Positions 38,351-59,980 of a stretch of DNA of 64,000 nucleotides are shown here, piece after piece. The position numbers and the translations under genes were made by a program. Numbering within the stretch: position 1 is the first letter of the stretch; every line of letters starts with the position of its first letter. Source of the DNA: Artemia franciscana (taxonomy: Eukaryota > Arthropoda > Branchiopoda > Anostraca > Artemiidae); assembly GCF_032884065.1 (NCBI RefSeq), contig NC_088873.1, forward strand, positions 33,987,600 to 34,051,599. Direction: 5' to 3'. The notes under the pieces are model-generated. The model worked only from the letters and a program-made list of their open reading frames with translations, ran no database searches and had not been told where the DNA came from.

Positions 38351-38610
38351 AAATTAGTTGAAAGTAAGGAGCGACATTAAAAATTAAAACGAACAGAAAT
38401 TACTCCGTATATGAAATGGGTTGTCGCCTCCGCAATCCCTCGCTCTTTACGCTAAAGCTTTTAATTGTTTTAAAAAGTAGAATTGTGGCAGAGTCAAACT
38501 TTAGCGTAAAGAGCGAGGGATTGCGGGGGGGACAACCCATTTCATATACGGAGTAATTTCTGTTCGTTTTAAGTTTTAATGTCGCCCCTTACTTTCAGCT
38601 AAAAAAATTA
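38351..38610. repeat. FBR fold-back 1
   Basis: Arms of about 105 bp (38351-38457 and 38497-38610) around a loop of about 40 bp. The inner arm ends are CTCGCTCTTTACGCTAAAG and its complement; the outer ends are GAAAGTAAGGAGCGAC and its complement. Confidence 0.85.
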
Positions 38611-40085
38611 GTTTTTTTATTTAATTTCTGAACGTTTTTGAATTAATGCATGTTTGGTTTTGGCTCTCCGCACATAAATTATTAAAATTAAATTTGTATA
38701 TTAATTCTTTTTTTTGGCTAAATGGCTTTCTCTTAGTTTTGATCAGACGATTTTGAGAAATCAGGGGTGGAGAAGGAGGTCTAGTTGCCCTCCAATTTTC
38801 CGGTTACTTAAGAAGGCATCTAGAACTTTTAATTTTTAACGAATATTTTTATTAGTAAAAAATATACGTAACTTAAGAATTAACTTACGTAATAAACTTT
38901 CATAATCTTATATTTTTATTATGTATACGAGGGGGTTTGTACCCTCGTTAATACCTCGCTCTTTACACTAAATCGTAAGTTTTGTCCCAATTCTTTAAGA
39001 ATGACCCCTGAATCAGAAAGGTCGTAGAATAAATAGTTGAAATTACTAAAAATACTATAGCATAAAGAGTGAGGTATTTATTTCCTCCTAAATACCTCGC
39101 TCTTTATGCTAAAGTATTTTTAAACCCTTCATATGCGTAATAATCTCTGTTCGTTTTAAGTTTCAATGCTACTCCTTCCTTTCATTTGAAAAAACGTTTT
39201 CATGTTTATTTTCCATTGTTTTCTTATAGTAATGCTAGAAAATGCTGCGCCCTTTTCATTGAATTTTTCTTCCCCCATGACAGATTCCTCCAAGGAAAGA
39301 TCCTCCAACATAGCCCCCTCCCTTCAGTCCCACCCCCAAACAAAATAAAATTCCCCCTGAAAACGTCTGTACACTTCCCAATAACCATTACTATATGTAA
39401 ACACTGGTCAAAGTTTGTAACTTGCAGCCCCTCCCCCAGGGATTGTAGGGGAGTAAGTCATCCCCAAAGACATGGTTATTATGGTTTTTGACTATGATGA
39501 ACAAAATGGCTATCTCAAAATTTTGATCCGTTTACTTTGGGAAAAAATGAGCGTGGGAGGGGGCCTAGATGCCCTCCAATTTTTTGGTCACTTGAAAAGG
39601 GCACTAGAACTTTTCATTTCCGTTAGAATGAGCCCTCTTGTGACATTCTAGGACAATTTGGTCGATACGATGACCCCTGGGAAAAAAACAAACAAAAAAA
39701 ACAAACAAAAAAAAGGCAAATAAACACGCATCCGTGATCTGCCTTCTGGCAAAAAATACAAAATTCCACAATCTTGCAGATAGGAGCTTGAAACTTCTAC
39801 AATTGGGTTTTCTGATATGCTGAATCTGATGGTGTGATTTTCGTCCAGCTTCTATGACTTTTAGGGGGTGTTTCCTCCTATTTTCTTAAATAATGCAAAT
39901 TTTCTCAGGCTCGTAACTTTTGATAAGTAAGACTAAACTTGATGAAGCTTATATATTTAAAATCAGCATTAAAATGCGATTCTTTTGATGTAGCTATTGA
40001 TATCAAACTTCAATTTTTTAGAGTTTTGGTTATTATTGAGCCGGGTCGCTCCTTACTACAGTTCGTTACCACGAATTGTTTGATC
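38351..40085 (-). mobile_element. FBR element, copy 1
   Basis: Non-coding repeat of about 1.7 kb. At the low-coordinate end is a long fold-back (38351-38610). The body follows, and the high-coordinate end is GAGCCGGGTCGCTCCTTACT then a small hairpin (CAGTTCGT/ACGAACTG-type arms, here with ACGAATTG) and TTTGAT. The same order appears in copies 2, 4 and 7. No ORF above background; unclassified, probably a non-autonomous DNA element. Confidence 0.7.
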
Positions 40086-40160
40086 TTGTTTCATTTTTCG
40101 TTTGATCTTGCTTTAATTCCATTTAAATTATACTAAAATATTAAAAGAGAACCAACTCAC

Positions 40161-40348
40161 ATAGAAACCACAACAACTGGTCCATAATCACTTCTTTGTC
40201 TCCATCGTTCAACCATATTCATCAATTCAACCAAACTATTAGTTGAAGTAGGCACTTTGTGACCTTCTGGCCAGCAAGTAAGCTGGAATAGTTGACAGGT
40301 CTTTGGAACTGCTTTTACTCCAGCCATGAGCTCAGTCAAAGACACAAT
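40161..40348 (-). CDS. Receptor-type protein tyrosine phosphatase exon (D2-like)
   Basis: A 188-bp exon between a good acceptor (CATACTTATAG) and donor (GTGAGT at 40160-40155). It encodes IVSLTELMAGVKAVPKTCQL, FQLTCWPEGHKVPTSTNS, LVELMNMVERWRQRSDYGPV and VVVS. The FQLTxWP...P/S...ExxNMVERW...GPVVV pattern is the WPD-loop strand, following helix and strand leading to the catalytic P-loop. WPE instead of WPD is typical of catalytically weak membrane-distal D2 domains. The P-loop itself should lie in the next exon at lower coordinates, which I could not find. Cytoplasmic part of a membrane receptor. Confidence 0.7.
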
Positions 40349-40480
40349 CTATAAGTATGCACAATTAATGAACAATTTTTGACAGTTAGTAAGTAGCGTC
40401 TAGCATACTGGAAGGAGGGGTGGAGTGATATTTCTTCCGAGCCTTCGAATCTTCCGACACTTTTAAGGTATCCAGAGATT

Positions 40481-40580
40481 NNNNNNNNNNNNNNNNNNNN
40501 NNNNNNNNNNNNNNNNNNNNNNNNNNNNNNNNNNNNNNNNNNNNNNNNNNNNNNNNNNNNNNNNNNNNNNNNNNNNNNNN
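40481..40580. other. Assembly gap (100 N)
   Basis: Exactly 100 N, so probably a fixed-size scaffold gap of unknown true length, inside the PTP intron. Confidence 0.99.
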
Positions 40581-41019
40581 ACTTCGGGGAGAATCCGGGC
40601 CCAAAGGCCCCTCCCCCTGCGTACGTACCAGCCCAAATTATATATTTTCCATGTATTTCGTCACTTTTCTTTGTCTTGTCTCACGCTAAGCTGACAGAAT
40701 CTAACCAAAAACAAGTTATGCAATGCGTAAATGAATGAACAACTTGAGCTGTAGGGGTTATTTCACACAAGTACCCTTTTTCTTTTCCCGAAATTTTATT
40801 ATTAATCATTTTTCTCTTTTTAGTATCTTTGTATTCCTTGTTATTTCAAAGGAGGGCTGGGGCAAGTGGCATTTAACCCATTTCCATTAATGTTAGATCA
40901 AAATTTCGCAAAAAAACTTCCTTCTGTTGTCAATAAACTAATAAAAAAAAATATCCTGGAAAAAGGGTCCTACTAAGTTAAGTTCTATAAATCGTTTTTT
41001 TGTAAACAAATTATATTAC

Positions 41020-41135
41020 CTGAAATTCAGCTTTTAGCAAAACAGGAAATTTTTTTCGTTGGTCATAATGTTTTGGAAAGTCTTTTAACTCAACAGACTT
41101 GTCTGCTATTGCTGCAAGTGCACCACTTTCCTCGG
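41020..41135 (-). CDS. Receptor-type PTP, upstream exon
   Basis: A 116-bp exon between acceptor TTTTTTTTTCTAG and donor GTAATATAA. It encodes EESGALAAIADKSVELKDFP, KHYDQRKKFPVLLKAEFQ and ends in phase 0. The exon at 40348 starts in phase 0, so the two join in frame (LKAEFQ|IVSLTEL). It fits the region just N-terminal to the WPD-loop strand, although I recognise it less securely than the next exon. No further upstream exon was found before the FBR block at 41956. Confidence 0.6.
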
Positions 41136-41139
41136 CTAG

Positions 41140-41955
41140 AAAAAAAATTAAATGAAAAAAATTATCACTGTAAATACTAAAAATGTTTTATTATTTAGCC
41201 TAATCAAAAATTCCGTGACGATGGGCAAACATTTATTTTACATTTTTTATAAGTTTCAAATGAAGTTTTTTAAAGAAAAATAAAGGTCTATTTTAACAGC
41301 TAAGACGAGGAGAAATGAAGTCATATAATATTTCAAATTTAAAACCAATAAAAATTACTATTGAAAAATAAATAAAAAGCAAAAGAAATAGAAATAAAAA
41401 TAAATATTAACAACAAACATAAGGATGCAAGGTGCTTCAATAGATAAATGAAAGAATCCTTAAACGAGCCTAAATCCTAAAAATATTAAAATGAATAGTC
41501 ACATCTAACTTAGAATAAATGGAATTTAGCCTAAACAAGAGTAGGCCTACTGCTAAAAAACCTTTTTGCTTACCAAACATAAAAGATTTTTTTGGGTTAT
41601 GTGATCGGATGTAAGTTGAAGGCTGCACATAAGAAGCCCTTTAGTTTGATTGCACCAAAAATCAGTGGGTGTGTTTGATTGCACCAAAAACCAAATTGCA
41701 CCAAAACCAGTATTTGGGAGTTAATTGTGCAGAGAAACGACGATAAATTCCTTTCACAATCTTTCTAGCGGATTGTAAACAGAAAACATGAAAAGTATTA
41801 TGAACTATGGGTAATGTTTGGTAGCAGCACAATTAGGTATGTATAATACCAAGGTATCTATACTTGAGTTTAGCGCTGTAGGTCACCTACACTCAACAAG
41901 TAATAGATCCCATTATTTGATTAGATCACTGAGACTTGTAATAATAATCACAGAG
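41140..41955. other. Intronic or intergenic DNA
   Basis: AT-rich, without recognisable exons. 41903-41958 (AATAGATCCCATTATTTGAT onward) recurs at 46757-46813, marking a host repeat into which FBR copy 2 inserted. Confidence 0.45.
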
Positions 41956-43458
41956 TAATCAAACAGTTCGTGGTAACGAACTGTAGTAAGGAGCGACCCG
42001 GCTCAATAGTAAACGAAACTCTAAAAAACGGAATTTAGATGCTAAAAGACACATCAAAAGAATCAGATTTTCATGCTGATTCTAAATATATTAAATAAAA
42101 AAAAAATAATTTTTTTAGCTGAAAGTAAGGAGCGACATTAAAACTTAAAACGAACAGAAATTACTCCGTATATGAAATGAGTTGTCCCCTCCGCAATCCC
42201 TCGCTCTTTACGCTAAAGCTTTTAATTTTTTTTTTTAAAGTAGACTTGTGGCAAAGAGTCAAACTTTAGCGTAAAGAGCGAGGGATTGCGGAGGGGACAA
42301 CTCATTTCATATACGGAGTAATTTCTATTCGTTTTAAGTTTTAATGTCGCTCCTTACTTTCAGCTAAAAAAATTATTTTTTTTTTATTTAATTTCTGAAC
42401 GTTTTTGAATTAATGCATGTTTGGTTTTGGCTCTCCGCACATAAATTATTAAAATGAAATTTGTATAATAATTCTTTTTTCTTTGCTAAATGGCTTTCTC
42501 TTAGTTTTGATCAGACGATTTTGAGAAATAAGGGGTGGAGAAGGAGGCCTAGTTGCCCTCCAATTTTTCGGTTACTTAAAAAGGCAACTAGAACTTTTAA
42601 TATTTAACGAACGTTTTTATTAGTAAAAAATATACGTAACTTAACAATTAACTTACGTAACAAACTTTCATAACCTTATATTTTTAATATGTATACGAGG
42701 GGGTTTGTACCCTCGTTAATACCTCGCTCTTTACACTAAATCGTAAGTTTTGTCCCAATTCTTTAAGAATGACCCCTGAATCAGAAAGGCCGTAGAATAA
42801 ATAGTTTAAATTACTAAAAATACTTTAGCATAAAGAGCAAGGTATTTATCTCCTCCTAAATACCTCACTCTTTATGCTAAAGTATTTTTAGAACCCCTCA
42901 TATGCGGAATAATCTCTGTTCGTTTTAAGTTTCAATGCTACTTCTTCCTTTCATTTGAAAAAACGTTTTCATGTTTATTTTTCATTGTTTTCTTATAGTA
43001 ATGCTTGAGAATCCTGCGCCCTTTTCATTGAATTTTTCTTTCCCCATGACAGATTCCTCCAAGGAAAGATCCTCCAACATAGCCCCCTCTCCTCAGCCCC
43101 ACCCCCAAGCAAAATAAAATCCCCCTGTAAACGTCTGTACACTTCCCAATAACCATTACTATATGTAAACACTGGTCAAAGTTTGTAACTTGCAGCCCCT
43201 CCCCCAGGGATTGTGGGGGAGTAAGTCATCCCCAAAGACATAGTTTTTATGGTTTTCGACTATGTTGAACAAAATGGCTATCTCAAAATTTTGATTCGTT
43301 GACTTTGGGAAAAAATGAGCGTGGGAGGGGGCCTAGATGCCCTCCAATTTTTTTGGTCACTTAAAAAGGGCACTAGAACTTTTCATTTCCGTTAGAATGA
43401 GCCCTCTTGCAAAATTCTAGGACCACTTGGTCGATACGATGACCCCTGGGGAAAAGAA

Positions 43459-43489
<31 letters not shown>

Positions 43490-43857
43490 ATAAACACGCA
43501 CCCGTGATTTGTCTTTTGGCAAAAAATAGAAAATTCCACATTTTTGTAGATAAGAGCTTGAAACTTCTACAGTAGGGTTCTCTGATACGCTGAATCTGAT
43601 GGTGTCATTTTCGTTAAGATCCTACGACTTTTAGGGGGTGTTTCCCCCTATTTTCCTAAATAAGGCAAATTTTCTCAGGCTCGTAACTTTTGATGGGTAA
43701 CACTAAACTTGTTAAAACTTATATATTTAAAATCAGCATTAAAATGCAATTCTTTTGATGTAGCTATTGATATCAAAATTCAATTTTTTAGAGTTTTGGT
43801 TACTATTGAGCCGGGTCGCTCCTTACTACAGTTCGTTACCACGAACTGTTTGATATA
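41956..43857 (-). mobile_element. FBR element, copy 2, with the end hairpin at both sides
   Basis: The only copy with the TCAAACAGTTCGTGGTAACG end at both extremities, giving about 130-bp terminal inverted repeats (41956-42090 and 43720-43857). The left one is joined directly to the fold-back (42091-42391); the body runs minus-oriented. No ORF. The left boundary is confirmed by the uninterrupted relative of its flank at 46757-46820. Confidence 0.7.
42091..42391. repeat. FBR fold-back 2
   Basis: Arms of about 125 bp (42091-42219 and 42265-42391), almost perfectly complementary; one visible difference is GAACAG against CTATTC. Confidence 0.9.
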
Positions 43858-44923
43858 AGTTTCACCAAATTTAATCTTTGTCATCAAAAGTTACGAGCCT
43901 GAGAAAATTTGCATCATTTTGGAAAATAGGGGAAAACACCCCATAAAAGTCATAGAAAATCACACCATCGCATTCGGTGTATCAGAGAACCCTATAGCAA
44001 AAATTTCAAGCTCCTGTCTACAAAAATGTAGAATTTCGTATTTTTTGCCAGAAGACAAATCACGGGTACGTGTTTATTTGTTTTTTTGTTTTTTTTCCCA
44101 GGGGTTATCGTATCGACCAAGTGGTCCTAGAATATTACAAGAGGGCTCATTCTAACAGAAATGAAAAGTTCTAGTGCCCTTTTTAAGTGACCAAAAATTT
44201 GGAGGGCATCTAGGCCCCTTCCCACGCTCATTTTTTACCCAAAATCAACGGATCAAAAATTTGAGATAGCCATTTTGTTTCGCATAGTCGAAAACCATAA
44301 TAACTATGTCTTTGGGAATGACTTTACCCCCAAAATCCCCAGGGGAGGGGCTGCAAGTTACAAACTTTGTCCAGTGTTTACATATAGTAATAGTTATTGG
44401 GAAGTATACAGACGTTTTCAGGGGGATTTTTTTGGTCTGGGGGTGGGGTTGATGGGAGGGGGCTATGTGGGAGGATCTTTCCTTGGAGGAATATGTCATG
44501 GGGGAAGAAAAATTCAATGAAAAGGGCGCAGAATTTTCTAGCATTACTATAAAAAAACAGTGAAAAAATAAACATGAAAAGGTTTTTTCAATTGAAAGTA
44601 AGGAATAGCATTGAAATTTAAAACGAACAGAGATTATTACGCATATGAGGGGTTCAAAAAATACTTTAGCATAAAGAGCGAGGTATTTTAGTAGGAGATA
44701 AATACCTCGCTCTTTATGCTAAAGTATTTTTAGTAATTTCAACTATTTATTCTACGGCCTTTTTGATTCAGGGGTCATTCTTAAAGAATTGGGACAAAAC
44801 TTACGATTTAGTGTAAAGAGCGAGGTATTAACGATGGTAAAAACCCCCTCGTACACATAATAAAAATATAAGAATATAAAAGTTTGTTACATAAGTTAAT
44901 TCTTAAGTTACGCATATTTTCAA
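43858..44923 (+). mobile_element. FBR element, copy 3, truncated both ends
   Basis: Plus-oriented body from ATAAGTTTCACCAAATTTAA to TAAGTTACGCATATTTTC, cut by the start of copy 4. Contains the internal 30-bp fold-back ATACTTTAGCATAAAGAGCG and its complement at about 44660-44733. Confidence 0.7.
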
Positions 44924-46667
44924 ACAGTTCGTGGTAACGAACTGTAGTAAGGAGCGACCCGGCTCAACAGTAACCAAAACTCTAAAAAATGGATTTTTGG
45001 TACCAATTAGCTATATCAAAAGAATCGCATTTTAATGCTGATTTTAAATATATACGTTTCATCAAGTTTAGTCTTACCCATCAAAAGTTACGAGCTTGAG
45101 AAAATTTGCGTTATTTTAGAAAATAGGGGGAAACACCCCCTAAAAGTCATAGGAGGAAACACCATCTTAACGAAAATAAAACCATCAGATTCAGCGTATC
45201 AGAGAACCCTACTGTAGAAGTTTCAAGCTCCTATCTACAAAAATGTGAAATTTTATATTTTCTGCCAGAAGGCAGATCACGGATGCGTGTTTATTTGTTT
45301 GTTTTTTTTGTTTGTTTTTTTCCCCAGGGGTGATCCTATCGACCCAGCTGTCCTAGAATGTTGCGAGAGGGCTCATTCTAACGGAAATGAAAAGTTCTAG
45401 TGCCCTTTTTAAGTGACCAAAAAAATTGGAGGGCACCTAGGCCCCCTCCCACGCTAATTATTTTCCCAAAGTCAACGGATCAAAATTCTGAGATAGCCAT
45501 TTTATTCTGCGTAGTCGAAAAACCTTATAACTATGTCTTTTGGGACGACTTACTCCCCCACAGTCCCCGTGGGAGGGATTACAAGTTCAAAACTTTGACC
45601 AGTGCTTACATATACTAATGGTTATTGGGAAGTGTACAGGCGTTTTCAGGTGGATTTTTTTGGTTGGAGGCAGGGGTTGAGAAGAGGGGGATATGCTGGG
45701 GGAACTTTCCATCGAGCAATTCGTCATGGGGGAAAATTTCCATGAAGGGAGCGCAGGAATTACTAGCATTACTTAAAAAAAAAACAATGAAAAAATAAAT
45801 ATAAAAAAGTTTTTTTTCAGCTGGAAGTAAGCAGCAGCATTAAAACTTAAAACGAACAGAAATTATTACCCATATGAGTGGCTCACTTCCTCCTAATACC
45901 TCGCTATTTACGCTAAAGTATTTTTAGTAATTTCAACTATTTATTCTGCGGCTTTTGTGATTCAGGGGTCATTCTTAATGAATTTGGACAAAATATAAGC
46001 TTTAGTGTAAAGAGCGAGGTACTGACGAGGGGGAGAACCCCCTCATATCTGTAATAAAAACATGAGAATACAAAAGTTCTTTACGTAAGCTAATTTATAA
46101 GTTACTTATATCTTTTACTTATAAAAAGATTCGTAAAAAATTAAAAGTTCTAGTTGCCTTTTTAATTAACCGAAAATCGGAGGGCAACTAGGCTTCCTCC
46201 CCCGCTCTTTTTTCTTAAAATCATTCGATCAAAATTATGAGAAAGCCATTTAGCCAAAAAAAATCAATATACAAATTTCGTTTTAATTATTCCTCTGCGG
46301 AGAGCCAAAATCAAAACATGCATTGATTCAAAAACGTTCAGAAATTAAATAAAAAAAACAAGTTTTTTAAATGAAAGTAAGGAGCGACATTAAAACTTAA
46401 AACGAACAGAAATAGCTCCGTATATGAAAGGTGATTTTCCTTCTCAACGCCCCGCTCTTTACGCTAAAGTTTTTTACTGTTTTAAAATGTAGAGTTAAGA
46501 GAAAGAGTCAAACTTTAGCGTAAAGAGCGGAGCGTTGAGACGGAAAATCCCCTTTCATATACGGAGTTTTAAGTTTTAAAAGTTTTAAGTTTTAAGTTTT
46601 AAGTACATTTCTGTTTTAAGTTTTAATGTCGCTCCTTACTTTCATTTAAAAAACTTGTTTTTTTTAT
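44924..46667 (+). mobile_element. FBR element, copy 4, complete type
   Basis: Starts TCAAACAGTTCGTGGTAACG and ends with the fold-back 46348-46667. About 1.74 kb, non-coding; same order as copy 7. Confidence 0.7.
46348..46667. repeat. FBR fold-back 3
   Basis: Arms 46348-46470 and 46511-46667. The right arm contains an expansion of AAGTTTT units (46562-46605). Inner arms read CTCAACGCCCCGCTCTTTA and its near complement, differing from fold-backs 1 and 2 in the same way on both sides. Confidence 0.85.
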
Positions 46668-46678
46668 TGTAATAAAAG

Positions 46679-46918
46679 GCTTGACAGACGAAGGGTCTTT
46701 TTTGCACTGACTTGTTAAACTGAATAGAACTGAATATTTAGCATAATGGATTTGTAATAGATCCCATTACTTGATTAGACCACTGAGACTTGTGATAGTA
46801 ATCACGGAATAATAAATAAATAAAATCACGTCATAAAGGGCTCGACAGGCGAAGGGTTTTTTTTCGCACTGACTTGTTAAACTGAACAGAACTGAATATT
46901 TAAAATAACGGATTTGTA
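46679..46918. repeat. Tandem duplication flanking an empty-site relative
   Basis: GGCTTGACAGACGAAGGGTC onward (46679-46757) recurs as GGGCTCGACAGGCGAAGGGT (46838-46918). The spacer 46757-46813 matches the left flank of FBR copy 2. Confidence 0.75.
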
Positions 46919-48424
46919 TATACTTATTACTATGTTTAATTTCATAAGAACACTATTCTGCGTGCCATTAACTGTGAACACAGTTAATACTCTTCTTGAT
47001 GGCTTCGCAAACTGTGTGTTTTTGTCTGTGTTGTTTCATAGTGGATTAAAGACGCTTCTTGTCTATTATGGTCCGTGTGTCTACCCTGCAATATGTTGCT
47101 TTAGCCGGGGTTCTTAAGAGACATAGATACACTTCTTTGAATATATCCACAAAAATCCCCCACAGGGAACCCAGCTCGAAGGGCTAGGTAGAATAGACAC
47201 AACAAAAGAATTAAACATATTTTGAAAGAAATATGGGAGAGAGAGAGAATGAAAGAAAGGGCGAGAGAAAAAGAAAAATAAACAGCAAATATAGTAAGCA
47301 ATTACAATATTGACCATTATTAAGCGCATCAGCTTAAGAGAATTTTCAATTAAAATTTTTATCATTTATGCTTGACAACAAATCCGGATATTTTTGATAT
47401 ACGTAATTAGCAGGTAACGTGAGATCACCCTGACTTCGGTGACTTTTTTCTCCAAAAAGTCATAGTGGCCTATAGAGATTAACTTCCTTAAAAATGTTTC
47501 AAATGGTTCGGTATACTTATAAAAGACATAACTGCCATTAGAATCACTGGAAAGCTTCCCTATTAAAGACACCAGTTGATCTTTGAACTTACTATAGCCT
47601 GTCTTAAGATCCTTCTTCTAGACCCTAGAGGGAATTCCAAGAGCCACAGCATAAATTGGACAGTCATATTATGTTTTTACATAGGCCTTAACTAAGGGTA
47701 TTTTCAAGCTGGAAAGGAAAAAGTACTACCATTTTCAAATGTAAAGAGACCAAACAGTATAAGTGGGCACTGGTGGGGGGCAGTTGTGTGGCTCTGAAAA
47801 CTCAGCCACCGTGGGTCTGCAGAACTTACGGTTTTAAAAGTCATCAAGTAACAATTAAGTTTCGAATGCTAGATAAGGCAGAGGAACCCATGGTCCTGCA
47901 AGAGCAAGAAGAAGAAGAAGAAATAGGCACTTTTTGAAACATCTGCGAAGGAAAGAATCCCCTAAGAATCAAAGATCATCAGCTCTCTTCAGAGTCTCTG
48001 CATCAAAATGTCTTTTTTCCTTGACAGTACTAGTTGAATCTAAAACATGTTTACGAACATACTAATTCCGCAAAAAGTTTATTATTGACTTCCCTCCAGC
48101 CCTCTTACTTCCCCTGATTTAACTTTAAAGCCGTAACCAGCATTTTCATCAAGCTCCTCACCATGTGCTAATGTATTGTTGTGTAAATTTATTGAAAGGT
48201 ATCTTAGTCTTTGTTCATTTCGTTTCTCAACCTTCTTACATGACGTCAGTTCCGTTGCACTTTGCCAACAGGAATGCCAGGAATTTTTCTTTGCTGAGGT
48301 TGCTTTGAGAACTGGCTTTGGAAACGTAAAGGGCATCAGATTCAAATTAGTTTGCCGTTTTGAAGATTAATTAAAAAGACAATTTTGAGCGAGACTGCAG
48401 TTGAAAACGGCCACCAACAATTCT
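46919..48424. other. Unrecognised DNA with small ORFs
   Basis: A minus-strand frame at 47605-47366 (KLSSDSNGSYVFYKYTEPF, LISIGHYDFLEKKVTEVR) is compositionally protein-like, but I recognise no family and see no clear splice sites. A minus-strand ORF at 48345-48082 is similar in status. Everything else appears non-coding. Confidence 0.35.
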
Positions 48425-49090
48425 TTCCATTATGGTGCAGGGCTGGAGCTCAAACATATCTTATTGCTTAAGATGTTTGTTCCTATTATGGTGCAATTCC
48501 TCCCATTACGGTGCAGGGCCAGAGCTCAAACATTTTTTATTGCTTAAGATGTTTGTTCCCATTATGGTGCAATTCTTCCCATTACGGTGTAGGGCCGGAG
48601 CTCAAACGTTTCTTATTGCTTAAGATGTTTGTTCCCATTATGGAGCAATTCTTCCCATTATGGTGCGGGGCTGGATCTCAAACATTTCTTATTGCTTAAG
48701 ATGTTTGTTCCCATTATGGTGCAATTCTTCCCATTATGGTGCAGGGCTGGAGCTCAAACATTTCTTATTCCTTAAGATGTTCGTTCCTATTATGGTGCAA
48801 TTCTTTCCATTATGGTGCAGGGCTGGAGCTCAAACATTTCTTATTGCTTAAGATGCTTGTCCCCATTATGCTACAATTCTTCTAATTATGGTGCAAGGCT
48901 TGAGCTCAAACATTTTTTATTACTTAAGATGTTTGTTCCCATTATGGTGCCATTCCTCCCATCATGGTGCAAAGCTAGAGCTCAACAATTTCTTATTGCT
49001 TAAGATGTTTGTTCCCATTATGCTACAATTCTTCTCATTATGGTGCAAGGCTGGAGCTCAAACATTTTTTATTGCTTAAGATGTTTGTTT
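48425..49090 (+). repeat. 76-bp tandem repeat
   Basis: Nearly nine head-to-tail units of about 76 bp with the core CATTATGGTGCAGGGCTGGA, GCTCAAACATTTCTTATTGC and TTAAGATGTTTGTTCC. 76 is not a multiple of three, so the overlapping ORFs here are by-products of the period. Confidence 0.9.
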
Positions 49091-49990: not shown

Positions 49991-50027
49991 CCTAACTAAA
50001 CACTCCGATCAGGACGGCTGCAACCTT

Positions 50028-51030
50028 ATGTGGCAGGTAGGGCCCACCCCGGGAATCTCAGTAACTAGGTCTCGATCATCGCGCGTCAAGGGACATGCTG
50101 ATGACGTCAGAAAGACTGACAGACTAAGCCTTATGGACCAAAGGATTCTAGGGACAGCCACCTGGAATGTCTTGACTCTTAATGCACCTGCGTCAAAGAA
50201 CCTACTCTCCGAAGAACTTCGCAAGAATAAAGTGTCAGTTGCGGGTCTTAAAGAAACCCGTTTTACCGGAAGTGGAGAAGAGCAAATAGGTAACAAGCAT
50301 CTTCGAGACCTCACAGAAAATAAAACTCCCGCCTTGGGTCCAGTCCTGTCAAGGGATGGGGCACTTCTTTCTGATGAAGGTTCTTGTCTTGAGAGGTGGA
50401 AGAACCACTTCTGTTCGCTCCTCAACAGTGCCTCTCCTCAGTACTAACTCATCTGTGCTCCCTAATGATAGTCCCAGCTAACCTTGCAGTCAAAGATCTG
50501 AAACAGATGCTCCTCAGACGAGCCTTTCAGCCCCTCAGAAATCGGATATGCAGTAAAAAGGCTCAAGAATAATAAAGCTGCTGGTATCTGCGGCTTAAGC
50601 TCAGAGCTACTAAAATATGGAGGCTCTGCAATGCTCTTGTTTCTCCACACCCTGTTCTCTACAATCTGGCAAACGGAGATAATTCCCAAGGATTGGCGGA
50701 AGGGTGTCATCTTCCCCTTATGGAAGAGGAAAGGCTCAAGAAGCGACTGCTCCAATTATCGGGAATAGCCCTACTGTCAGTCCCCGGCAGACTGTTTTCA
50801 ATGGTCCTGCTGGATCGATGTCGGAATATCATTCGAAAAGTCCGGCGACCGGAGCAAGCTGGTTTTATGTCGGACCGTTCAACCATCGAGCAGATTTTCA
50901 CGATTCGAAAAATAGTATAGAAGACCACAGAGTTCCAACAGAAAACATTTATTGCTTCGTCGACTTCTGTCCTGCATTTGACTCAGCATTCTGTCCTGTT
51001 TTTGACAGAGTAAACTTGACTGGCGTATAA
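50028..51030 (+). pseudogene. LINE pseudogene with internal deletion
   Basis: A second non-LTR family. The endonuclease start (RILGTATWNVLTLNAPASKN, VAGLKETRFTGSGEEQI) jumps at about 50288 to a pre-RT linker (LLSDEGSCLERWKNHFCSLL), so most of the endonuclease is missing. From 50530 RT codons appear in shifting frames: LKNNKAAGICGLSSELLKYG, TIWQTEIIPKDWRKGVIFPL, CSNYRGIALLSVPGRLFS, QAGFMSDRSTIEQIFTIRKI and IYCFVDFCPAFDS (catalytic Asp block, degraded). It ends near 51030 before the YxDD block. Confidence 0.8.
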
Positions 51031-54000
51031 TACATAAGTGCCCCTAGCAGTTCCTGAGATATTGCAGATACGCCCTATAGAGCATATAAAGTCTTTAGAT
51101 TTATTTTTAAGTCTCCCTCAGCATTCCGTGAAATTTTCAACTTATTGGACAATAAGAAAATCATGTTCTTGCTGTAAGTGAATACAGACTGAGGTAGCTC
51201 TGAGATTCAGAGATGATAAGAGAAGAATGGACAATAAATGAGAATGAAGAGATCGTGTACCTTTTTGCTGTAAAAAGGTCAGTCAAAACAATAAGAACTG
51301 AAATTGATAAAATGAAGAACAAGAGCCAACGCTCTGACTTCGTCTGTAATAAAGAGCTATACGTCCTTAACGTGTTATATAATTTTTCCCCCAACACATC
51401 TAATAGAAAACGCGGTAATTACAAATTTGGAGGGGCTCATTTGATTGGAAGTTGAAACTTCCAATACCCTTTCTCTGGAGTCAAAAGTGACTGGATGGTT
51501 ACCAAACATCCCCTTCATGTGCCCTATCTCTTCTCAGTACCCTTTAATCCCTAAAGATATAAAAAAGATTTGTGACAGTATTTTACTCAGAATAGCAAAA
51601 AGGTTCAATTAATACGCCTTCTGAATGGCTCAAATCCGGTGTAACAAGGGCAGTAAATAATGTAAATTGCAAGTTATTGGATTTTATTTTGATAAAGGAG
51701 GCCTTGTGCGATTTTGTATAGGCGAGTTGATCGAAACTTTTAAGGATCGTCATTTGACTAAAAAAAAAAAAAAACATTTTGTCGTGGAGAAGGGGGGCAG
51801 GGTTTGTAAATGGGCTTAAAAGGTTCTAGTCCCTAATAAGTTTTAGAACTGCAGCCGTAAGGCATTGAGCCAAAAGGAACCTAATGTATAAATAGTTCCG
51901 CTGCAGCCCATCCTTCCCCATTAAAAGATAAATTTGGCCCCAAAAAGGCCCGAAAAGGCTATTTTTTATCGGCTTGAAACTTCAATCCTTTACTCTTTGG
52001 GCTAAGGGGAAAATACTGCAGGTGAAAAATAGAAAATGAATTCCCTATAAAATGGGACTGACATTGGGATAGAATAGCCCAAAACCGTTGTTCAGCAGAA
52101 ACTTCTCATGGAATGGTGATCATAGAAACTTGAGGAAAACCAGTCTCCCTAACGCATGTTTTTTTATACCCAGGCCTCGTAAGTCTAATGGTATTGGATC
52201 CAAATTCTGAGACACTGATTTCTGTTCACTAAAATGTCTAATTACCATGCCTCTTAGGTCAACTTGATAAGGTCCACAGCCCGACGGGCAATAATCCTAA
52301 ATTACATAAACTAACAATTTTTCACATATAGGCTTTAGTAGAAAAAAAAAATGCTCGAGATTGTTCAATAGGCCAAGATTCCAAGAATTTCGCAAGGATA
52401 GAATCTGTACCCGACACGGATACCTGAGTATATCAAAAGACACTAATAATGCACCTGCTTATCCACAGCAAGTAAACCACTTAGCGACTTGGTATCCACT
52501 AGTTTCTATCCACTTAGTATCCACTTAGCGACGAAGAACACATTGCCTTTCCGTCATAAAACCGATAACAGGTCAAACAATCGGAATTTATGAAAGACAA
52601 TGAATTTTTTTAACCTTTGAATATGAACATTTTGGTTCTGCATCAAAGGGCCATCCTCATACATAAATAAAATGAGACTTATAGTAAAATGCGATCGTCA
52701 AAACTAAAATTAAAAAATTAGAAAATTCCCAGAATTATTATTTCAAGGAAATTCGACTAATATTGAAGAAAAAACAGCACGAAGTGAGGCAATCCATTCA
52801 GGTAAATACAAATCAAGACTATATTTTTAATGCTATTCTTGCTTTTATAGCAGATATATAGCAGCTTTTATGGCAAATAAAACCAGCTTATAGCAGCTAT
52901 ATATAGCAGCTTTTATGGCAGATAAAAATGCAGTTTACTAGCAAGTAGAGCAATTGCAGAATTGAAAAAAGACTCAATCTGCTCATTAAGAGCAATGGAA
53001 TATGCCGTTTTTTCTTGCTTTTACCAGTGTGGTTCCTATTGCTGAGATCGTTTCTTTTTTCAAACAGGACTGAAATAAGTGAACTGAAATAATAGTGAAC
53101 TGAAATAAGGACTGAAATAAGAACTGAAATAAGATAGTTGAAAATCAGAAAGGGACAACCTGAGATAACCTCTCATGATTTTAATTAGCTAATAAAACAA
53201 AACATGTGTCCAAATCAAAACAATTCAAATGGTTCAAGACGGAGAAAGGGATAAATCAAAACAATTCAAATGGTTCAAAGTTAATATAAATTCAAATGTT
53301 CAGAAGTTTGAGCTTTTGAGCAATTCATATGCAAAAAAAGGAAGAATGTAAAGTATAAAATTCAAAGTTAATGGAAAATGGCCAAAAAATTAGGAGGAAA
53401 AATTACTTTGTATGTGGGGACACATACTTGAATCTGTCAAAAACTACGAGAAGTAGGAAACACGAGATCACGGAAAACATCAATGAACATTTTCCAATCA
53501 GATTATTAAATTAATAAAGCCTTATATGAAAAGAAGAATTAAAAACTGAAGTTTGGAAGTGAAAAATAACTAATAAAACTGAAAATTCAAAATTCGTAGT
53601 CTTGTATGAAACCTAAAAGAAGGAATCAAAATCGAAGCCATTTGAAGAAGCTCTCTGCCAAAACATTAATTCTTTTCTCAAATTTTGCCCCAATTGTGAA
53701 ATCTAGCTCGTTGTTTGGGCAACGAGGAAGATTTACGTGACGTAAATGTTCTTTTACGTTAGGTTGTTCTTACTAACCTAATAAGGTTTCGACAAACTTA
53801 CGTAATACAAAACTCTGGCCAAATTGAAATTCAAGCCTTATATATACAGTAAAATGTTTTTTTTTTTTCAAATTGCTCTAGAATTCCTTAAAAAATGTGT
53901 AAATTATACTAATCACTTTGGATTTTTTTTTCTTAATAGGCTAAGACGGAGAAATCCCTAAGACAAGGAGCCAGTTTACCAAAATTCCATTGGATTTTTT

Positions 54001-54320
54001 TCATAATGGGCTAAGACGGAGAAATCTCCAAAATGAGGGGTCTGTTTAGCAAAATTACATGAATAATTCATGTTATATCTTATAAATGCAAAAGCGAAAT
54101 ATAAATCCAGGAATATAGTAATTCCAGGCCCGTTATAGCCTCTTTCAAAATGTAGGATCGACAGATATTACCCCCTTATTTATTCCCTCTAATTTGCAAG
54201 TAAAAATACTAGATGAGTTGTCATCTTATGTTTATTCATGGCTGTTGAAATAATTATCAGAAGGCTGTCTGAAATATTATAGGCAGCGCAAAGCCTAAGT
54301 AATGAGCGATGGGGCAAAAT
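51031..54320. other. Mostly unrecognised DNA with small local repeats
   Basis: 51430-51540 resembles 54390-54470 (CAAAAGTGACTG context). Local repeats: TATAGCAGC blocks at 52845-52925; five GAACTGAAATAAG-like units at 53065-53135; a duplicated AATCAAAACAATTCAAATGG at 53212-53280; a repeat of about 75 bp around GCTAAGACGGAGAAATC at 53920-54060. No exon supported. Confidence 0.4.
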
Positions 54321-54370
54321 GTTTTTTATTTATTTTTTTAACCAAGGCACTTCGCATAGAAGTTCTCGTA
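54270..54370 (+). repeat. Dispersed repeat end
   Basis: ATAGGCAGCGCAAAGCC, GAGCGATG and ACCAAGGCACTTCG match the block at 63900-64000, which runs off the window. Confidence 0.5.
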
Positions 54371-54519
54371 GAAACTTCGGAAGGAACTCATTCGATTGCA
54401 AATTCAAAGTTCTAGTTCGCTGTTTAAGAGTCAAAAGTGACTGAAGGGAAGCCAACCCACTTTCAGGGAATACATAAAAGGGAATACAAATTGACCAAAA
54501 GTTAATATCCGCATGGTAT

Positions 54520-55420
54520 TAATAATACTACCACCGCTGCTGCTACTTCTACTACAACCACTCAGGTTACTATTTCTAATGCTAAGGTTAAGAGTATGAA
54601 GACGAAAATTTTAGGGAGTGTTGAGAGGGAAGCTGGACTAAATTAAAGCACTCTTTGAACTGGTTTTCAAAAAGGCGTGTGAGCAATATCATAGCAATAG
54701 TTAATTGTATTAAGTTGAAACTTGTATTAAAGGGATGAAGGGGATGTTCCATGGACCAAAAGGCAATATGTTAATGCTCCTGCTGCTACTAGTACTAGTT
54801 CTTTTACTGTTAATACTATTACTAGTTCTAAAACTATTACTACTGCTATTCCTAGCACCACTACTAATACAGCAATAGTTCAGGGCCTGAAAATGAAATC
54901 TTCAGGGAATATTGAGAAGAGGTTGAACTGAATCAGAACACGCCGTCTGTATGTAGGTTGTCGTATGAGCAATATCTTAGGAACGGCTTGATTTTTGAAG
55001 TTCGAACTTCCAGAGCTTTTTATGGAGCATGTTAAGCTAACAAAAAATAAATATTTGCATCTTACTTGTACTGCTTCTGCTAATACTGCTACTGCTACTA
55101 AAGCTAAGGCTACTACTTCTAATTCTACTGCTTCTACTACTGCTATTTTTACTACTATTAGCCTTTTAGTGGTATACCAAGAAGTTCCCATTTCCAATAG
55201 ATCTTTACTTATGATATCCTCCCAACCCATTCGGAGGCGAACTGCTTTTCGTTTGGCCCTGGAAGGTGGGTGAAAAGGAGAATTTCTGCCAATCTTTCGT
55301 CCTTTGTTCTAAAACTAAGGGTATTAAGGCGAAAAGTATTGGATTTGTCGAATCAGAACTGAACTAAACCAAAGCACATTACGCGCATAAAAGTTGTCAA
55401 GGGGATGTATCAGCAAAGGC
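54520..55420 (+). repeat. Trinucleotide-rich tandem units
   Basis: Three diverged units, each with an ACT/GCT-rich run (54525-54580, 54775-54870, 55065-55160) and a partner block around GGGTATTAAGGCGAAAA, ACTGAACTAAACCAAAGCAC and GAGCAATATC. Short ORFs with Thr/Ala or Val/Ala runs come from the trinucleotide bias. Confidence 0.6.
55185..55265 (-). pseudogene. LINE C-terminal fragment
   Basis: The minus strand encodes PSRAKRKAVRLRMGWEDIIS, KDLLEMGTSWYT, the kind of C-terminal segment expected to follow the RT of the LINE at 24774-27357, where it is missing. About 27 codons only. Confidence 0.7.
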
Positions 55421-55617
55421 TATTTTTTTTTTATTCATTTTTATTTAATAACAATTATTGACAAAAGAATTAACATAAACATACCCCCTCCAAATGTCAA
55501 AGCATGATATGGAAGAAGGATTACCAAACAAAAAAAAAAAACAACAAAAACGAAAAACTAAACAAAAAACAACTTAACATGAACCTAAGAAGGGCTTTAA
55601 GAACAAAACAAAACTCC

Positions 55618-56513
55618 ATCAATTTTAATGCTGCTCGTCACTTTCAGTAGAAAAAACTTTTCATATTTATTTTTTCATTGTTTTTTTTTTTAAATAATGC
55701 TAGAAAATCCTGCGCCCCCTCCATTGAAAGTCTTTTCCCCATGAGAAGCTCCTCCATGGAAAGATCCTCCCACGTAACCCCTCCCCTAACAAAAAAAAAA
55801 TCCCCCTGAAAACGTCTCTACACTTCCCAATAACCATTACTACATGTAAACACAGGTCAAAGTTTGTAACTTGCAGCCCCTCCCAAGGGAACTGCGGGGG
55901 AGTAAGTCGTCACAAAAGACATAGTTATTGGGTTTTTCGACTATGGTGAATAGAATGGCTATCTCAGAATTTTGATCCGGTGACTTTGGGGGAAAATGAG
56001 CGTGGGAGGGGGCCTAGGTGCCCTCCAATTTTTTCTGTCACTTAAAAAGGGCACTAGAACTTTCAATTCCGTTAGAATGAGCCCTTTCGCGACATTCTTG
56101 GACCACTGAGTCGATAAGATCACCCCTGGGAAAAAAAAACAAACAAATAAACACTCGTCCGTGATTTGTCTTCTGGCAAAAAATGCGAAATTCCACATTT
56201 TTGTAGATAGGGGCTCAAAACTTCTACAATAGGGTTCTCTGATACACTGAATCTGATGGTGTGATTTTTGTTAAGATTGTATGACTTTTAGGGGGTGTTT
56301 CCCCCTATTTTCTAAAATAAGGCAAATTTTCTCAGGCTCGTAACTTTTGATGGGTATAGCTGATCTTGATGAAATTTATATATTTAAAATCAGCATTAAA
56401 ATACGCTTCTTTTGATGTAACTATTGGTATCAAAATTCCATTTTTTAGAGTTTCGGTTACTATTGAGCCGGGTCGCTCCTTACTACAGTTCGTTACCACG
56501 AACTGTTTGATAT
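55618..56513 (-). mobile_element. FBR element, copy 5, truncated
   Basis: Minus-oriented body starting near TTTTAATGCTGCTCGTCACT and ending with the hairpin terminus CTGTTTGATA. It lacks the fold-back and splits a duplicated region (55265-55617 and 56935-57240). Confidence 0.7.
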
Positions 56514-57585
56514 AATTTTTCCCCCAAACACATCAAATAGAAAATGCAGTATTCAAGATACTTCTGATGCAAGAGCTTCTGATACAGAAGTTAGAACATC
56601 AAAAGCAGAAAACTTATTACAGATTCTTAAATGCAAGTTTTTGTCTTGCATTAATAAATCATATTTATTTATCGTTTTGTCTTATATTAACAAATGGCCA
56701 ATCAATCGAGAGCTACTATTAGCCTTTTAGTGGTACTTTTACTACTACTACCAACAACTCATTGCAGCACCAATCCATCTGAGGCTAACACCGGTCCGCA
56801 GGCTCCTCTTCTGTCCCAATCTATCCAAGGTATCCCTTTTTACACTCTACCAAGAAGTTCCCATTTCCAATAGATCTTTATTTATGATATCCTCCCAACC
56901 CATTCGGAGGCGAACTGCTTTTCGTTTGGCCCATTTCTGCCAATCTTTCGTCCTTTGTTCTAAAACTAAGGGTATTAAGGCAAAAAATATTGGATTTGTC
57001 GAATCAGAACTGAACTAAACCAAAGCACATTACGCGCATAAAAGTTGTCAAGGGGATGTATCAGCAATGACTATTTTTTTAATCATTTTTATTTAATAAC
57101 AATTATTGACAAAAAAAAATTAACATAAACATACCCCCTCCAAATGTCAAAGCATGATATGGAAGAAGGATAACCAAAAAAAAACGAAAAAAAAAAGAAA
57201 CAACTTAACATGAACCTAAGAAGGGCTTAAGAACAAAACACAACTACAATATCACATACCTTGCTACCACTCGCTTATCACTCCACACTCAACTTCTTTC
57301 TTAACACACCTCAATAGAAATAAAACATACCTTTAATTATTTAATACCAATTTATTCTATCAAGTGTGCATCCTATTAATTTAACCATTGAAATCATATT
57401 TAGAAAAAAATTCATTCTTCAACAGCCTTTTAAATTCACTTAAATTGCTATTTTTGATATTTAACGAATTCCATAGTTCAGTCCCTCAAAAAATAAAAGG
57501 AAACCTGACCCAGAAGTAACCAAATTATTAACACAAATTTTGCTAATTGACCTTGTACCATGGGAATGAACTTATGCGTGAATGC
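56514..57585. other. Duplicate of 55155-55617 plus unrecognised DNA
   Basis: 56715-57240 repeats 55150-55617, including a second LINE C-terminal fragment (minus strand, 56925-56843) and the AACAATTATTGACAAAA block. 57241-57585 is unrecognised. Confidence 0.65.
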
Positions 57586-58262
57586 ATCAAACAGTTCGTG
57601 GTAACGAACTGTAGTAAGGAGCGACCAGGCTCAATAGTAGCCGAAACTCTAAAAAACGGAATTTCGATAACAACAGTTACATCAAAAGAATCACATTTTA
57701 ATGGTGATTTTAAATATATAAGCTTCATCAAGTTAAGTCTTACCCATCAAAAGTTATGAGCCTGAGAAAATTTGCCTTATTTTAGAAAATAGGGGAAGAC
57801 AACCCCCAAAAGTCATTTAATCTTAACGTAAATCACACCATCAGACTCAGCGTACCAGAGAACCCTACTGTATAAGTTTCAAGCTCCTATCTACACAAAT
57901 GTGGAATTTTGTATTTTCTGCCAGAAGACAGATTACGGATGCGTGTTTATTTGTTTGTTTGTTGTTTTTTTTGCTTTTTTTTCCAGGGGTGATCGTATCA
58001 ACCAAGTGGTCCTAGAATGTTGATAGAAGGCTCATTCTAACGGAATTTAAAAGTTCTAGTGCCCTTTTTGAGTGACCAAAAAAATTGGAGGGCACCTTGG
58101 CCCCCTCCCACGCACATTTTTTTCCAAAGTCACCGGATCAAAATTTTGCGATAACCATTCTGTTCAGCCTAGTCGAAAACTCAATAACTATGTCCTTGGG
58201 GACGACTTAATCCCTCACAGTCCCCGGGGGAGGGGCTGGAAGTTACAAACTTTGACCATTGT
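57586..58262 (+). mobile_element. FBR element, copy 6, truncated
   Basis: Starts TCAAACAGTTCGTGGTAACG and is cut at 58262 by the start of copy 7 in the same orientation. Confidence 0.7.
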
Positions 58263-59980
58263 CAAACAGTTCGTGGTAACGAACTGTAGTAAGGAGCGAC
58301 CCGGCTCAATAGTAACCAAAACTCTAAAAAATGGAATTTTGATACCAATAGCTACATCAAAAGAATCGCATTTTAATGCTGGTTTTAAATATATAAGTTT
58401 CATCAAGTTTAGTCTTACCCATCAAAAGTTACGAGCCTGAGAAAATTTGCGTTATTTTAGAAAATAGGGGGAAACGCCCCCTAAAAGTCATAGAATCTTA
58501 AAGAAAATCACACCATCAGATTCAGCGTATCAGAGAACCCTACTGTAGAAGTTTCGAGCTCCTATCTACAAAAATGTGGAATTTTGCATTTTTTGCCAGA
58601 AGGCAGATCACATATGCGTGTTTATTTGTTTTTTTGTTTTTTTTTTTTTGTTTTTTTTCCCAGGGGTGATCGTATCGACCCAGTTGTCCTAGAATGTTGC
58701 AAGAGGGCTCATTCTAACGGAAATAAAAAGTTCTAGTGCCCTTTTTAAGTGACCAAAAAAATTGGAGGGCACCTTGGCCCCCTCCCACGCTAATTATTTT
58801 CCCAAAGTCAACGGATCAAAATTCTGAGATAGCCATTTTATTAAGCGTAGTCGAAAAACCTTATAACTATGTCTTTGGGGACTACTTACTCCCCCACAGT
58901 CCCCGTGGGAGGGGCAACAAGTTACAAACTTTGACCTGTGCTTACATATAGTAATGGTTATTGGGGAGTATACAGGCGTTTTCAGGAGGATTTTTTTGGT
59001 TTGGGGGAGGGGTTGAGAAGAGGGGGATATGCTGGGGGAACTTTCCTTCGAGAATTTGTAATGGGAGAAGAAAATTTCCATGAAGGGAGAGCAGGATTTA
59101 CTAGCATTATTTAAAAAAACAATTAAAAAATAAATGTGAAAAAGCTTTTTCAGCTGGAAGTAAGGAACAGCAATAAAACTTAAAACAAACAGAATTTATT
59201 ACCCATATGAGGGGCTCACCTCCTTCTAATACCTCGCTCTTTACGCTAAAGTATTTTCGGTAATTTCAACTACTTATTCTACGGCTTTTGTGATTCAGGG
59301 GGTCATTCTTAATGAATTGGGATACAATTTAAGCTTTAGTGTAAAGAGCGAGGTACTGACGATGGGGCGAATCCCCTCATATATGTAATAAAAACATGAG
59401 AATACAAAAGTTCTTTACGTAAGCTAATTTATAAGTTACGTAAATCTTTTACCAATAAAAAGATTCGTAAAAAATTAAAAGTTCTAGTTGCCTTTTTAAT
59501 TAACCAAAAAATCGGGGGGCAACTAGGCTTCGTCCCCCGCTCTTTTTTTCTCAAAATCATTCGATCAAAATTATGAGAAAGCCATTGAGCCAAAAAAAAA
59601 ATATGCAAATTTCGTTTTGATTATTCCTCTGCGGAGAGCCAAAATCAAAACATGCATTGATTCAAAAACGTTCAGAAATTAAATAAAAAAAACAAGTTTT
59701 TTCAACTGAAAGTAAGGAGTGACATCAAAACTTAAAACGCACAGAAATTACTTCGTATATGAAAGAGGCTGCTTCCTCATCAACGCCCCGCTCTTTACGC
59801 TAAAGTTTTTTACTGTTTTAGAAAGAAGAATTGAGAGAAAGAGTCAAACTTTAGCGTAAAGAGCGGGGCGTTGATGAGGAAGCAGCGTCTTTCATATACG
59901 AAGTAATTTCTGTGCGTTTTAAGTTTTGATGTCACTCCTTACTTTCAGTTGAAAAAACTTGTTTTTTTTTTATTTAATTT
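58263..59980 (+). mobile_element. FBR element, copy 7, complete type
   Basis: About 1.72 kb from the hairpin end TCAAACAGTTCG to the fold-back 59679-59980. Non-coding. Confidence 0.7.
59679..59980. repeat. FBR fold-back 4
   Basis: Arms 59679-59805 and 59849-59980, nearly perfect. The variants GTGAC/GTCAC, CGCACAG/CTGTGCG and ATCAACGCC/GGCGTTGAT set it apart from fold-backs 1 and 2 symmetrically in both arms. Confidence 0.9.

What the first reader, a model, noticed from the sequence alone, without database searches (positions are those of the whole stretch)
38351..59980. Fold-back arms that change together between copies
Four FBR fold-backs (38351, 42091, 46348, 59679) have arms of about 105-130 bp. 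Differences between copies are mirrored in both arms: AGCGAC/GTCGCT versus AGTGAC/GTCACT; GAACAG/CTGTTC versus GCACAG/CTGTGC; GCAATCCCTCGC versus TCAACGCCCCGC with their complements. Matching changes imply arm-to-arm copying (hairpin-templated correction), repeated de novo formation of the fold-back, or selection for a duplex. It could be a transposon end recognised as a hairpin or a source of double-stranded RNA.
Basis: partly seen in the sequence, partly recalled or inferred. Interest (0 to 1): 0.75.

Follow-up and report, generated by a model that had tools for sequence, protein, structure and literature searches.

The report
Jumping DNA with self-matching hairpin end
In the brine shrimp genome, thousands of copies of a rolling-circle-type jumping element end in a 130-base-pair hairpin whose two arms change in step, apparently because one arm is copied from the other in the lineage that jumps, after which each copy decays in place.

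Summary
The four fold-backs are one end of a non-coding ~1.75 kb mobile element with Helitron2/HINE-like anatomy: a 12-bp inverted repeat inside the hairpin, its partner beside a small 3' hairpin, and precise insertion without target duplication. Its exact 39-bp 3' end occurs 16,730 times. In both young subfamilies sampled the consensus arms pair perfectly (130 and 131 bp). On a tree from the body alone, internal branches carry 17 mirrored and 1 single-arm core change; tips carry 11 and 41. Mirrored changes run near the body's rate, too fast for independent compensation. Copies picked by body sequence show about the mismatch expected of freely decaying arms (13 seen, 16.8-23.5 expected), though most were also in the first sample. 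In 5 Mb typed by exact strings, 37 hairpins matched on both arms and none was mixed. The loop inverted once. Best explanation: arm-to-arm copying (template switching or hairpin repair) in the source lineage, probably in a single-stranded transposition intermediate; that timing is inferred. Not shown: autonomous partner, small RNAs, hairpin function. New variant of a known kind.

The parts
38336..40083 (+). Element 1 (flipped-loop lineage, sister to group A): hairpin at left end, body, 3' ATIR and small 3' hairpin
38354..38602 (+). FB1 hairpin, arms 38354-38460 and 38496-38602; 5' ATIR GTAAGGAGCGAC at 38364
42091..43853 (+). Element 2 (group A, flipped loop), inserted in an older copy 41959-42090 | 43854-44919
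42090..42392 (+). FB2 hairpin, arms 132 nt, 98% complementary; 5' ATIR at 42125
43815..43853 (+). 3' end of element 2: ATIR GTCGCTCCTTAC, small hairpin 43829-43848, TTTGA; this 39-bp string occurs 16,730 times exactly in the genome
41959..42090 (-). Older element copy, 3'-terminal part, cut by the insertion of element 2
   Evidence: joined-flank comparison (2-bp difference in a TA run)
43854..44919 (-). Same older copy, continuation; it ends where element 3 begins (whether it goes on beyond element 3 was not tested)
44920..46669 (-). Element 3 (ancestral loop orientation); right boundary approximate
46348..46668 (-). FB3 hairpin; outer arm carries a roughly 30-bp insertion of TTAAAACTTAAAAC-like units
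58262..59977 (-). Element 4 (group B, ancestral loop orientation), inserted without duplication into an older copy 57587-58261 | 59978-60566
59685..59969 (-). FB4 hairpin, arms 124 nt, 99% complementary; carries AGTGAC and GCACAG in both arms
58262..58300 (-). 3' end of element 4: small hairpin 58267-58286 and ATIR 58289-58300
59139..59392 (.). Probable relic of an older hairpin inside the body: 59139-59210 is 76% complementary to the outer arm; pieces of 59195-59251 still pair with pieces of 59334-59392

Best explanation
The fold-backs are the 5' hairpin of a non-autonomous rolling-circle (Helitron2/Helentron-type) element that spread widely in Artemia. SHOWN in the samples taken: one end is a ~290-bp hairpin holding the 5' subterminal inverted repeat; the other is the matching repeat plus a small hairpin; insertions with a recognisable empty site show no target duplication; in two young subfamilies the hairpin is perfect in consensus; core changes on internal branches are mirrored; changes on tips are mostly one-armed; the loop is inverted in one lineage. 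INFERRED: when the element's single strand folds during transposition, one arm is copied from the other, by polymerase template switching or mismatch repair of the folded hairpin. A one-arm mutation is then either erased or spread to both arms, which gives mirrored substitutions at about the neutral rate; a switch that runs through the loop inverts it. The hairpin probably persists because it marks or terminates the 5' end in transposition, as proposed for the short 5' hairpins of Helitron2.
For: Consensus arms complementary over 130 of 130 (A, 29 copies) and 131 of 131 (B, 28 copies) pairs. At the seven pairs picked because they vary by mirrored states, 194 of 196 cells in 28 B copies are Watson-Crick pairs, with one gap and one mismatch. 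Body-tree parsimony on 97 core columns: internal 17 mirrored and 1 single, tips 11 mirrored and 41 single; Fisher p 4e-8, or 8e-13 if all tip mirrored changes but one are dropped. Mirrored rate 17/97 = 0.175 per pair against 282/1325 = 0.213 per body site on internal branches. Body-picked sample: 26 of 30 loci usable, 13 mismatches in 2,521 pairs; expected 16.8 from private and 23.5 from total body divergence. Four older copies mismatch at 7-18% within the element. Loop inverted relative to the body in the 30 A loci and FB1; not inverted in the 30 B loci, FB3, FB4 and 6 further hairpins whose body side is known. Exact-string typing: 37 concordant, 0 mixed; derived GCACAG in both arms of 44 hairpins, 12 arms unpartnered, 0 seen paired with the listed GAACAG string in the part that both lists cover. 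Gap-free empty sites for L039, L042, L045 and L047. Template switching homogenises inverted-repeat arms and inverts spacers (PMC8604942, passages) and can maintain hairpins (PMC8794818, passages).
Against: No transposition intermediate was observed; timing rests on internal versus tip branches. Twelve of the 17 internal mirrored changes lie on the two deep branches between A and B, so they may not be 17 separate events. The outer 31 AT-rich columns were left out of the tree counts; there, and at one CpG pair of the core, one search lists single-arm variants shared by 2-6 copies (10 variants in A, 8 in B), some of which may have passed through transposition unchanged. Overall one search counts 49 single-arm and 4 mirrored cells in A, 61 and 53 in B. 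The 60 tree loci were chosen by hairpin similarity, which lowers tip mismatches (27 seen, 81 expected); the body-picked check concerns group A only, and 20 of its 26 loci are also hairpin-picked ones; the 6 others have 5 mismatches where about 10 are expected, about half of that from L098. Eleven mirrored changes map to tips: 5 on FB3's long branch, 5 on L040 and L053, whose hairpin and body disagree, 1 on L050; so copying in situ is not excluded. The two arms of L025 do not group together in the arm tree. No autonomous partner with these ends was found. The 5' ATIR lies about 28-35 bp from the 5' end, not 0-2 bp as described for Helitron2. In group B1 the 5' ATIR changed in both arms while element 4's 3' ATIR did not.
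Confidence: 0.7

Rival explanations
1. Selection only: imperfect hairpins cannot transpose, so source lineages are always perfect, and mirrored changes are compensatory double mutations.
For: Internal branches show one single-arm core change, in a segmental duplicate; a 5' hairpin is thought to matter for Helitron2 (PMC3627910, passages).
Against: Mirrored changes run at 0.175 per pair against 0.213 per body site; two independent hits per site would be far rarer, and simulation gives 0.13 on average. The loop inversion is unexplained.
Confidence: 0.1
2. Copying occurs in the resident chromosomal copy (cruciform or replication-fork template switching), with only perfect copies later serving as sources.
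For: Some mirrored changes sit on tips (11); two mirrored changes two bases apart are private to L028; hairpin-picked copies have fewer mismatches than expected (27 against 81), though that sample is biased.
Against: Body-picked group A copies show 13 one-arm mismatches against 16.8-23.5 expected without correction (20 of 26 loci overlap the first sample); four older copies mismatch at 7-18%.
Confidence: 0.23
3. Repeated de novo formation: the hairpin is rebuilt from one arm each time a subfamily arises.
For: The body carries a decayed hairpin related to the present one, so a hairpin may have been gained more than once.
Against: The loop is homologous in the sampled subfamilies, and within group B mirrored changes arise a few at a time on successive branches.
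Confidence: 0.07
4. Assembly artefact: polishing made the arms alike.
For: Hairpins are hard to assemble, and the arms attract each other's reads (general knowledge).
Against: Mirrored states are consistent clade by clade across many loci; older copies keep mismatches; artefacts would choose an arm at random in each copy.
Confidence: 0.03

Closest known systems
Helitron2 elements (Bao and Jurka 2013, PMC3627910, passages read; Fusarium Helitron2, PMC5148889, passages read)
   Same: 5' hairpin that includes the 5' ATIR; 3' ATIR immediately upstream of a small 3' hairpin, ending 27 nt before the 3' end; 5' T; no target duplication; compensatory changes in terminal structures of two related elements noted in PMC3627910
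   Different: 5' ATIR about 28-35 bp from the end instead of 0-2 bp; arms of ~130 bp where the Fusarium 5' stems are a few bp; no RepHel gene in the element; partner unknown
HINE / DINE-1 (Helentron non-autonomous elements; PMC4067079, passages read)
   Same: Non-coding, 12-15 bp subterminal inverted repeats, 3' palindrome, T-rich insertion sites, no target modification, high copy number
   Different: No 130-bp hairpin in the passages read; A^T-like junctions in group A here (24 of 25, 19 of 24) rather than TT
Foldback transposons (general knowledge; only search listings seen)
   Same: Long inverted arms with a loop
   Different: Here the fold-back is one end only, the other end is unlike it, and no target duplication was seen
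Template-switch homogenised inverted repeats (PMC8604942, PMC8794818; passages read)
   Same: Arm homogenisation and loop inversion
   Different: Those described are short and resident; here it appears on the transposing lineage of a mobile element over ~130 bp
Parvovirus rolling-hairpin termini (recalled, no call)
   Same: Terminal hairpin repair from the other arm and inversion
   Different: Flip/flop every cycle would give mixed loop orientations; here each sampled subfamily has one (30 of 30 in each)

Membership tests
Helitron2 / HINE (non-autonomous) | Subterminal inverted repeats of 8-15 bp (ATIR/subTIR) | tested here: met
   GTAAGGAGCGAC / GTCGCTCCTTAC, 12 bp, in the FB1, FB2 and FB3 elements; FB4's hairpin has one mirrored change in it
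Helitron2 / HINE (non-autonomous) | Small hairpin near the 3' end, just after the 3' ATIR | tested here: met
   CAGTTCGTTACCACGAACTG then TTTGA at the 3' ends
Helitron2 | 5' hairpin involving the 5' ATIR | tested here: met
   ATIR lies in the outer arm of the 130-bp hairpin
Helitron2 | 5' ATIR 0-2 bp from the 5' end | tested here: not met
   about 28-35 bp from the TTAAAT start in the window copies
Helitron-like (all) | No target-site duplication; precise empty sites | tested here: met
   Of 50 loci tried, 7 gave a usable empty site: gap-free for L039, L042, L045, L047; L029 and L068 have gaps only away from the junction; L009 differs by 2 bp in a TA run. L054 and L055 only matched each other's filled site
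Helentron / HINE | Insertion in TT dinucleotide | tested here: inconclusive
   Group A: A at -1 in 24 of 25, T at +1 in 19 of 24; group B: G, T, A, A, A at -5 to -1 in 24-25 of 25
Helitron1 (canonical) | 5' TC and 3' CTRR ends | tested here: not met
   Ends are TTAAAT and TTTGA
Helitron2 / Helentron | Mobilised by a RepHel protein of an element with the same ends | not tested
   Genome is rich in Helitron_like_N (150 of 150 scored candidates over cut-off), but no flanking DNA could be fetched
Foldback / TIR DNA transposon | Long inverted repeats at both ends and target duplication | tested here: not met
   Hairpin at one end only; no duplication at the 7 usable empty sites

The most novel reading that the evidence does not exclude
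A rolling-circle transposon that proofreads its own terminus: at each transposition the ~130-bp 5' hairpin in the single-stranded intermediate is made perfect by copying one arm from the other, so the hairpin is renewed at every jump and decays only while resident. The degree of arm mismatch would then be a built-in clock of time since insertion for each copy.
Probability: 0.38. Interest if true: 0.75.

Novelty: new variant of a known kind. Interest (0 to 1): 0.57.

Why it matters
How rolling-circle transposons define and keep their 5' end is poorly understood. Here tens of thousands of arm strings in one genome offer a natural experiment on hairpin-templated correction during transposition: mirrored changes would mark events in the source lineage, one-arm changes the time since insertion. 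It also gives a case where covariation in a hairpin is best explained by copying and not by selection on RNA structure, a caution for inferring RNA function from covariation.

Tried and rejected
Homologues elsewhere: none in plasmids or phages by distant blastn with element 2; none in viral contigs for one 18-mer; 8 prokaryote contigs share another 18-mer and were taken as chance without further study. tRNA origin: ARAGORN found none in the window. Coding element: only frames of 150 aa or more were listed; the one in this region, 157 aa at 44245-44718, lies inside repeat copies. Rolling-hairpin (flip/flop each cycle): rejected, loop orientation is fixed in each sampled subfamily. The in-window PIF1/Rep element at 12372-15827 as partner: not supported, since the small 3' hairpin of this family was not found near it with up to 4 mismatches. 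In-situ correction: the deficit of mismatches (27 against 81) is at least partly selection bias; the body-picked sample does not show it clearly. The tool's pair count was not obtained, because I twice typed a structure string of wrong length; I computed similar measures in a script.

Rows dropped: the hairpin alignments leave out L026, L043 and L062 (end motif not found); the arm set skips L019, L031, L042 and L067; the tip comparison leaves out duplicates L034 and L055, L012, L022, L053, L057 and L064 (masked or truncated bodies) and FB3; the outer 31 arm columns are left out; one search leaves out 4 of 30 loci without an intact outer arm start (L081, L082, L083, L095).
Full report
WHERE. 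The window is C11:33,987,600-34,051,599 of an assembly of 1,270,528,402 bases in 6,468 contigs. Contig C2 is 67,337,973 bp long, exactly the longest scaffold reported for the female Artemia franciscana assembly (PMC11492255, passages read). That paper reports 1,270,721,445 bp in 6,486 scaffolds, and our C1 is longer than C2, so this is a closely related version and not surely the identical one. The paper puts rolling-circle elements at 8.81% of the genome. The window holds an APC13-like frame and Helitron and reverse-transcriptase fragments, so it is eukaryotic.

OBSERVATION. Four fold-backs are present; three have arms 94-99% complementary, and in the third of the four a roughly 30-bp insertion splits one arm.

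WHAT IT IS. Each fold-back is one end of a unit. In all 30 loci fetched with FB2 as query the hairpin adjoins body sequence on one side, and so it does in all 30 loci fetched with FB4. The unit reads TTAAATAAAA - hairpin - about 1.4 kb body - GTCGCTCCTTAC - TACA - GTTCGTTACCACGAAC - TGTTTGA. The outer arm holds GTAAGGAGCGAC, the exact inverse of the 3' repeat. Flanks of 50 loci were examined (25 A, 25 B); 7 gave a usable empty site. Joined flanks match an uninterrupted relative without any gap for L039 (the window's FB4), L042, L045 and L047; L029 and L068 have gaps only away from the junction; L009 (the window's FB2) differs by 2 bp in a TA run. In group A the base before the unit is A in 24 of 25 and the base after it T in 19 of 24. 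The exact 39-bp 3' end occurs 16,730 times (8,388 + 8,342; reversed control 0), and the exact 43-bp arm string holding GAACAG 25,890 times.

HOW THE ARMS EVOLVE. Consensus arms pair perfectly over 130 bp in group A (29 aligned copies) and 131 bp in group B (28 aligned copies), although A and B differ from each other by 13.2% in the body (175 of 1,327) and by about 16% in the arm core (L010 against L041). Cell by cell, one search counts 49 single-arm and 4 mirrored deviations from consensus in A and 61 and 53 in B; mirrored ones expected by chance are below 0.1 in each. It also lists single-arm variants shared by two or more copies (10 in A, 8 in B), most of them in the AT-rich outer end where the alignment is unsure. 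At the seven B pairs picked because they show mirrored states, 194 of 196 cells pair. Parsimony on a tree made from the body alone, for the 97 core columns, gives 17 mirrored and 1 single-arm change on internal branches. Twelve of the 17 lie on the two deep branches between A and B and five within the groups; the single one joins L033 and L034, which share flanks and so are a segmental duplicate. Tips have 41 single-arm and 11 mirrored changes: 5 on FB3's long branch, 3 on L040, 2 on L053 and 1 on L050. The difference between internal and tip branches has p = 4e-8, which treats changes as separate events. Mirrored changes occur at 0.175 per pair and body changes at 0.213 per site on internal branches, as expected if a one-arm change is spread or erased with even odds; independent double hits would give about 0.13 events.

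DECAY AFTER INSERTION. In the hairpin-picked loci arm mismatches are scarcer than body divergence predicts (27 against 81), but that sample was selected for good hairpins. In a second sample picked by the 3' body end, 26 of 30 loci could be used, and 13 mismatches were found in 2,521 pairs, against 16.8 expected from private and 23.5 from total body divergence. Twenty of these 26 loci are also in the first sample; the six others have 5 mismatches against about 10 expected, half of that from the one divergent copy L098. Other copies met in the fetched DNA have a within-element mismatch of 0.073 to 0.175 (L056b, L012b, L025, L067), 0.031 (L021) and 0 (L012a, of the young type); L062's outer arm is largely lost; L025's two arms do not group together in the arm tree. 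So arms are near perfect in young copies and mismatched in older ones.

UNSELECTED TYPING. Lists of exact 26-mers in C1 (first 100 places of each) give, between 1 and 5,050,614, 15 hairpins with the A string in both arms, 22 with the B string in both, and none mixed. Arms without a partner (44 of 74 A, 56 of 100 B) have changed somewhere in the other arm's 26 bp or lost it. The derived GCACAG string occurs 5,084 times; of the first 100 places 88 form 44 hairpins and 12 lack a partner, the last of them at the end of the list.

LOOP. The loop is homologous in the sampled hairpins. Relative to the body it is inverted in the 30 group-A loci and FB1, and not inverted in the 30 group-B loci, FB3, FB4 and 6 further hairpins with known body side (L026 was misoriented by my script, and L043 and L067 were missed by its pattern and read). 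In the body-picked loci 26 of 30 are inverted, 3 have no readable loop and 1 is unclear. One inversion on the A/FB1 lineage explains this. Spacer inversion is a known by-product of template switching between inverted-repeat arms (PMC8604942, passages), and its rarity argues against a hairpin that is turned over at every cycle.

MECHANISM. Shown: mirrored core changes on internal branches, mostly one-arm changes on tips, and one loop inversion. Inferred: copying happens in the transposition intermediate, where a rolling-circle element is single-stranded and the hairpin can fold. Helitron2 elements have a 5' hairpin that includes the 5' ATIR, and a role in ending replication has been proposed (PMC3627910, passages). 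The element here fits that plan but for its very long arms and the 28-35-bp distance of the ATIR from the end. The 5' ATIR of group B1 changed in both arms while element 4's 3' ATIR did not, so strict ATIR-to-ATIR complementarity is not required.

PRINT. In 8 library searches I saw no description of this Artemia family or of a Helitron-like element with arms this long; they cover the held open-licence papers only, and most papers were seen as listing and start of abstract. Passages were read in PMC4067079, PMC11492255, PMC8604942, PMC8794818, PMC5148889 and PMC3627910.

Noticed in passing
window 11360-11600: Two canonical Helitron1-like 3' ends (GC-rich hairpin followed by CTAG, label recalled) face each other across a (TA)n run, near a Rep/PIF1 Helitron frame at 12372-15827.
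   Followed up: no
L039, L042, L045, L047, L062, L067, L068: By their flanks seven of 30 group-B loci appear inserted at the same body site (TATGTAAA^CA-like) of different older copies; group B also has GTAAA directly before the unit in nearly all of 25, so microhomology or a fixed 5' extension is possible.
   Followed up: partly
L040, L053, L058: Hairpin haplotype and body clade disagree, which suggests exchange of hairpins between copies or an unsure tree.
   Followed up: no
window 46570-46610: The outer arm of FB3 carries repeated TTAAAACTTAAAAC-like units, a complex local duplication.
   Followed up: no
window 42684-42980 and 59139-59392: Decayed hairpin-like sequence related to the terminal hairpin inside the body, which suggests that a new 5' end was once stacked outside an older one.
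   Followed up: partly
window 40481-40580: A run of 100 N, an assembly gap or a withheld stretch.
   Followed up: no
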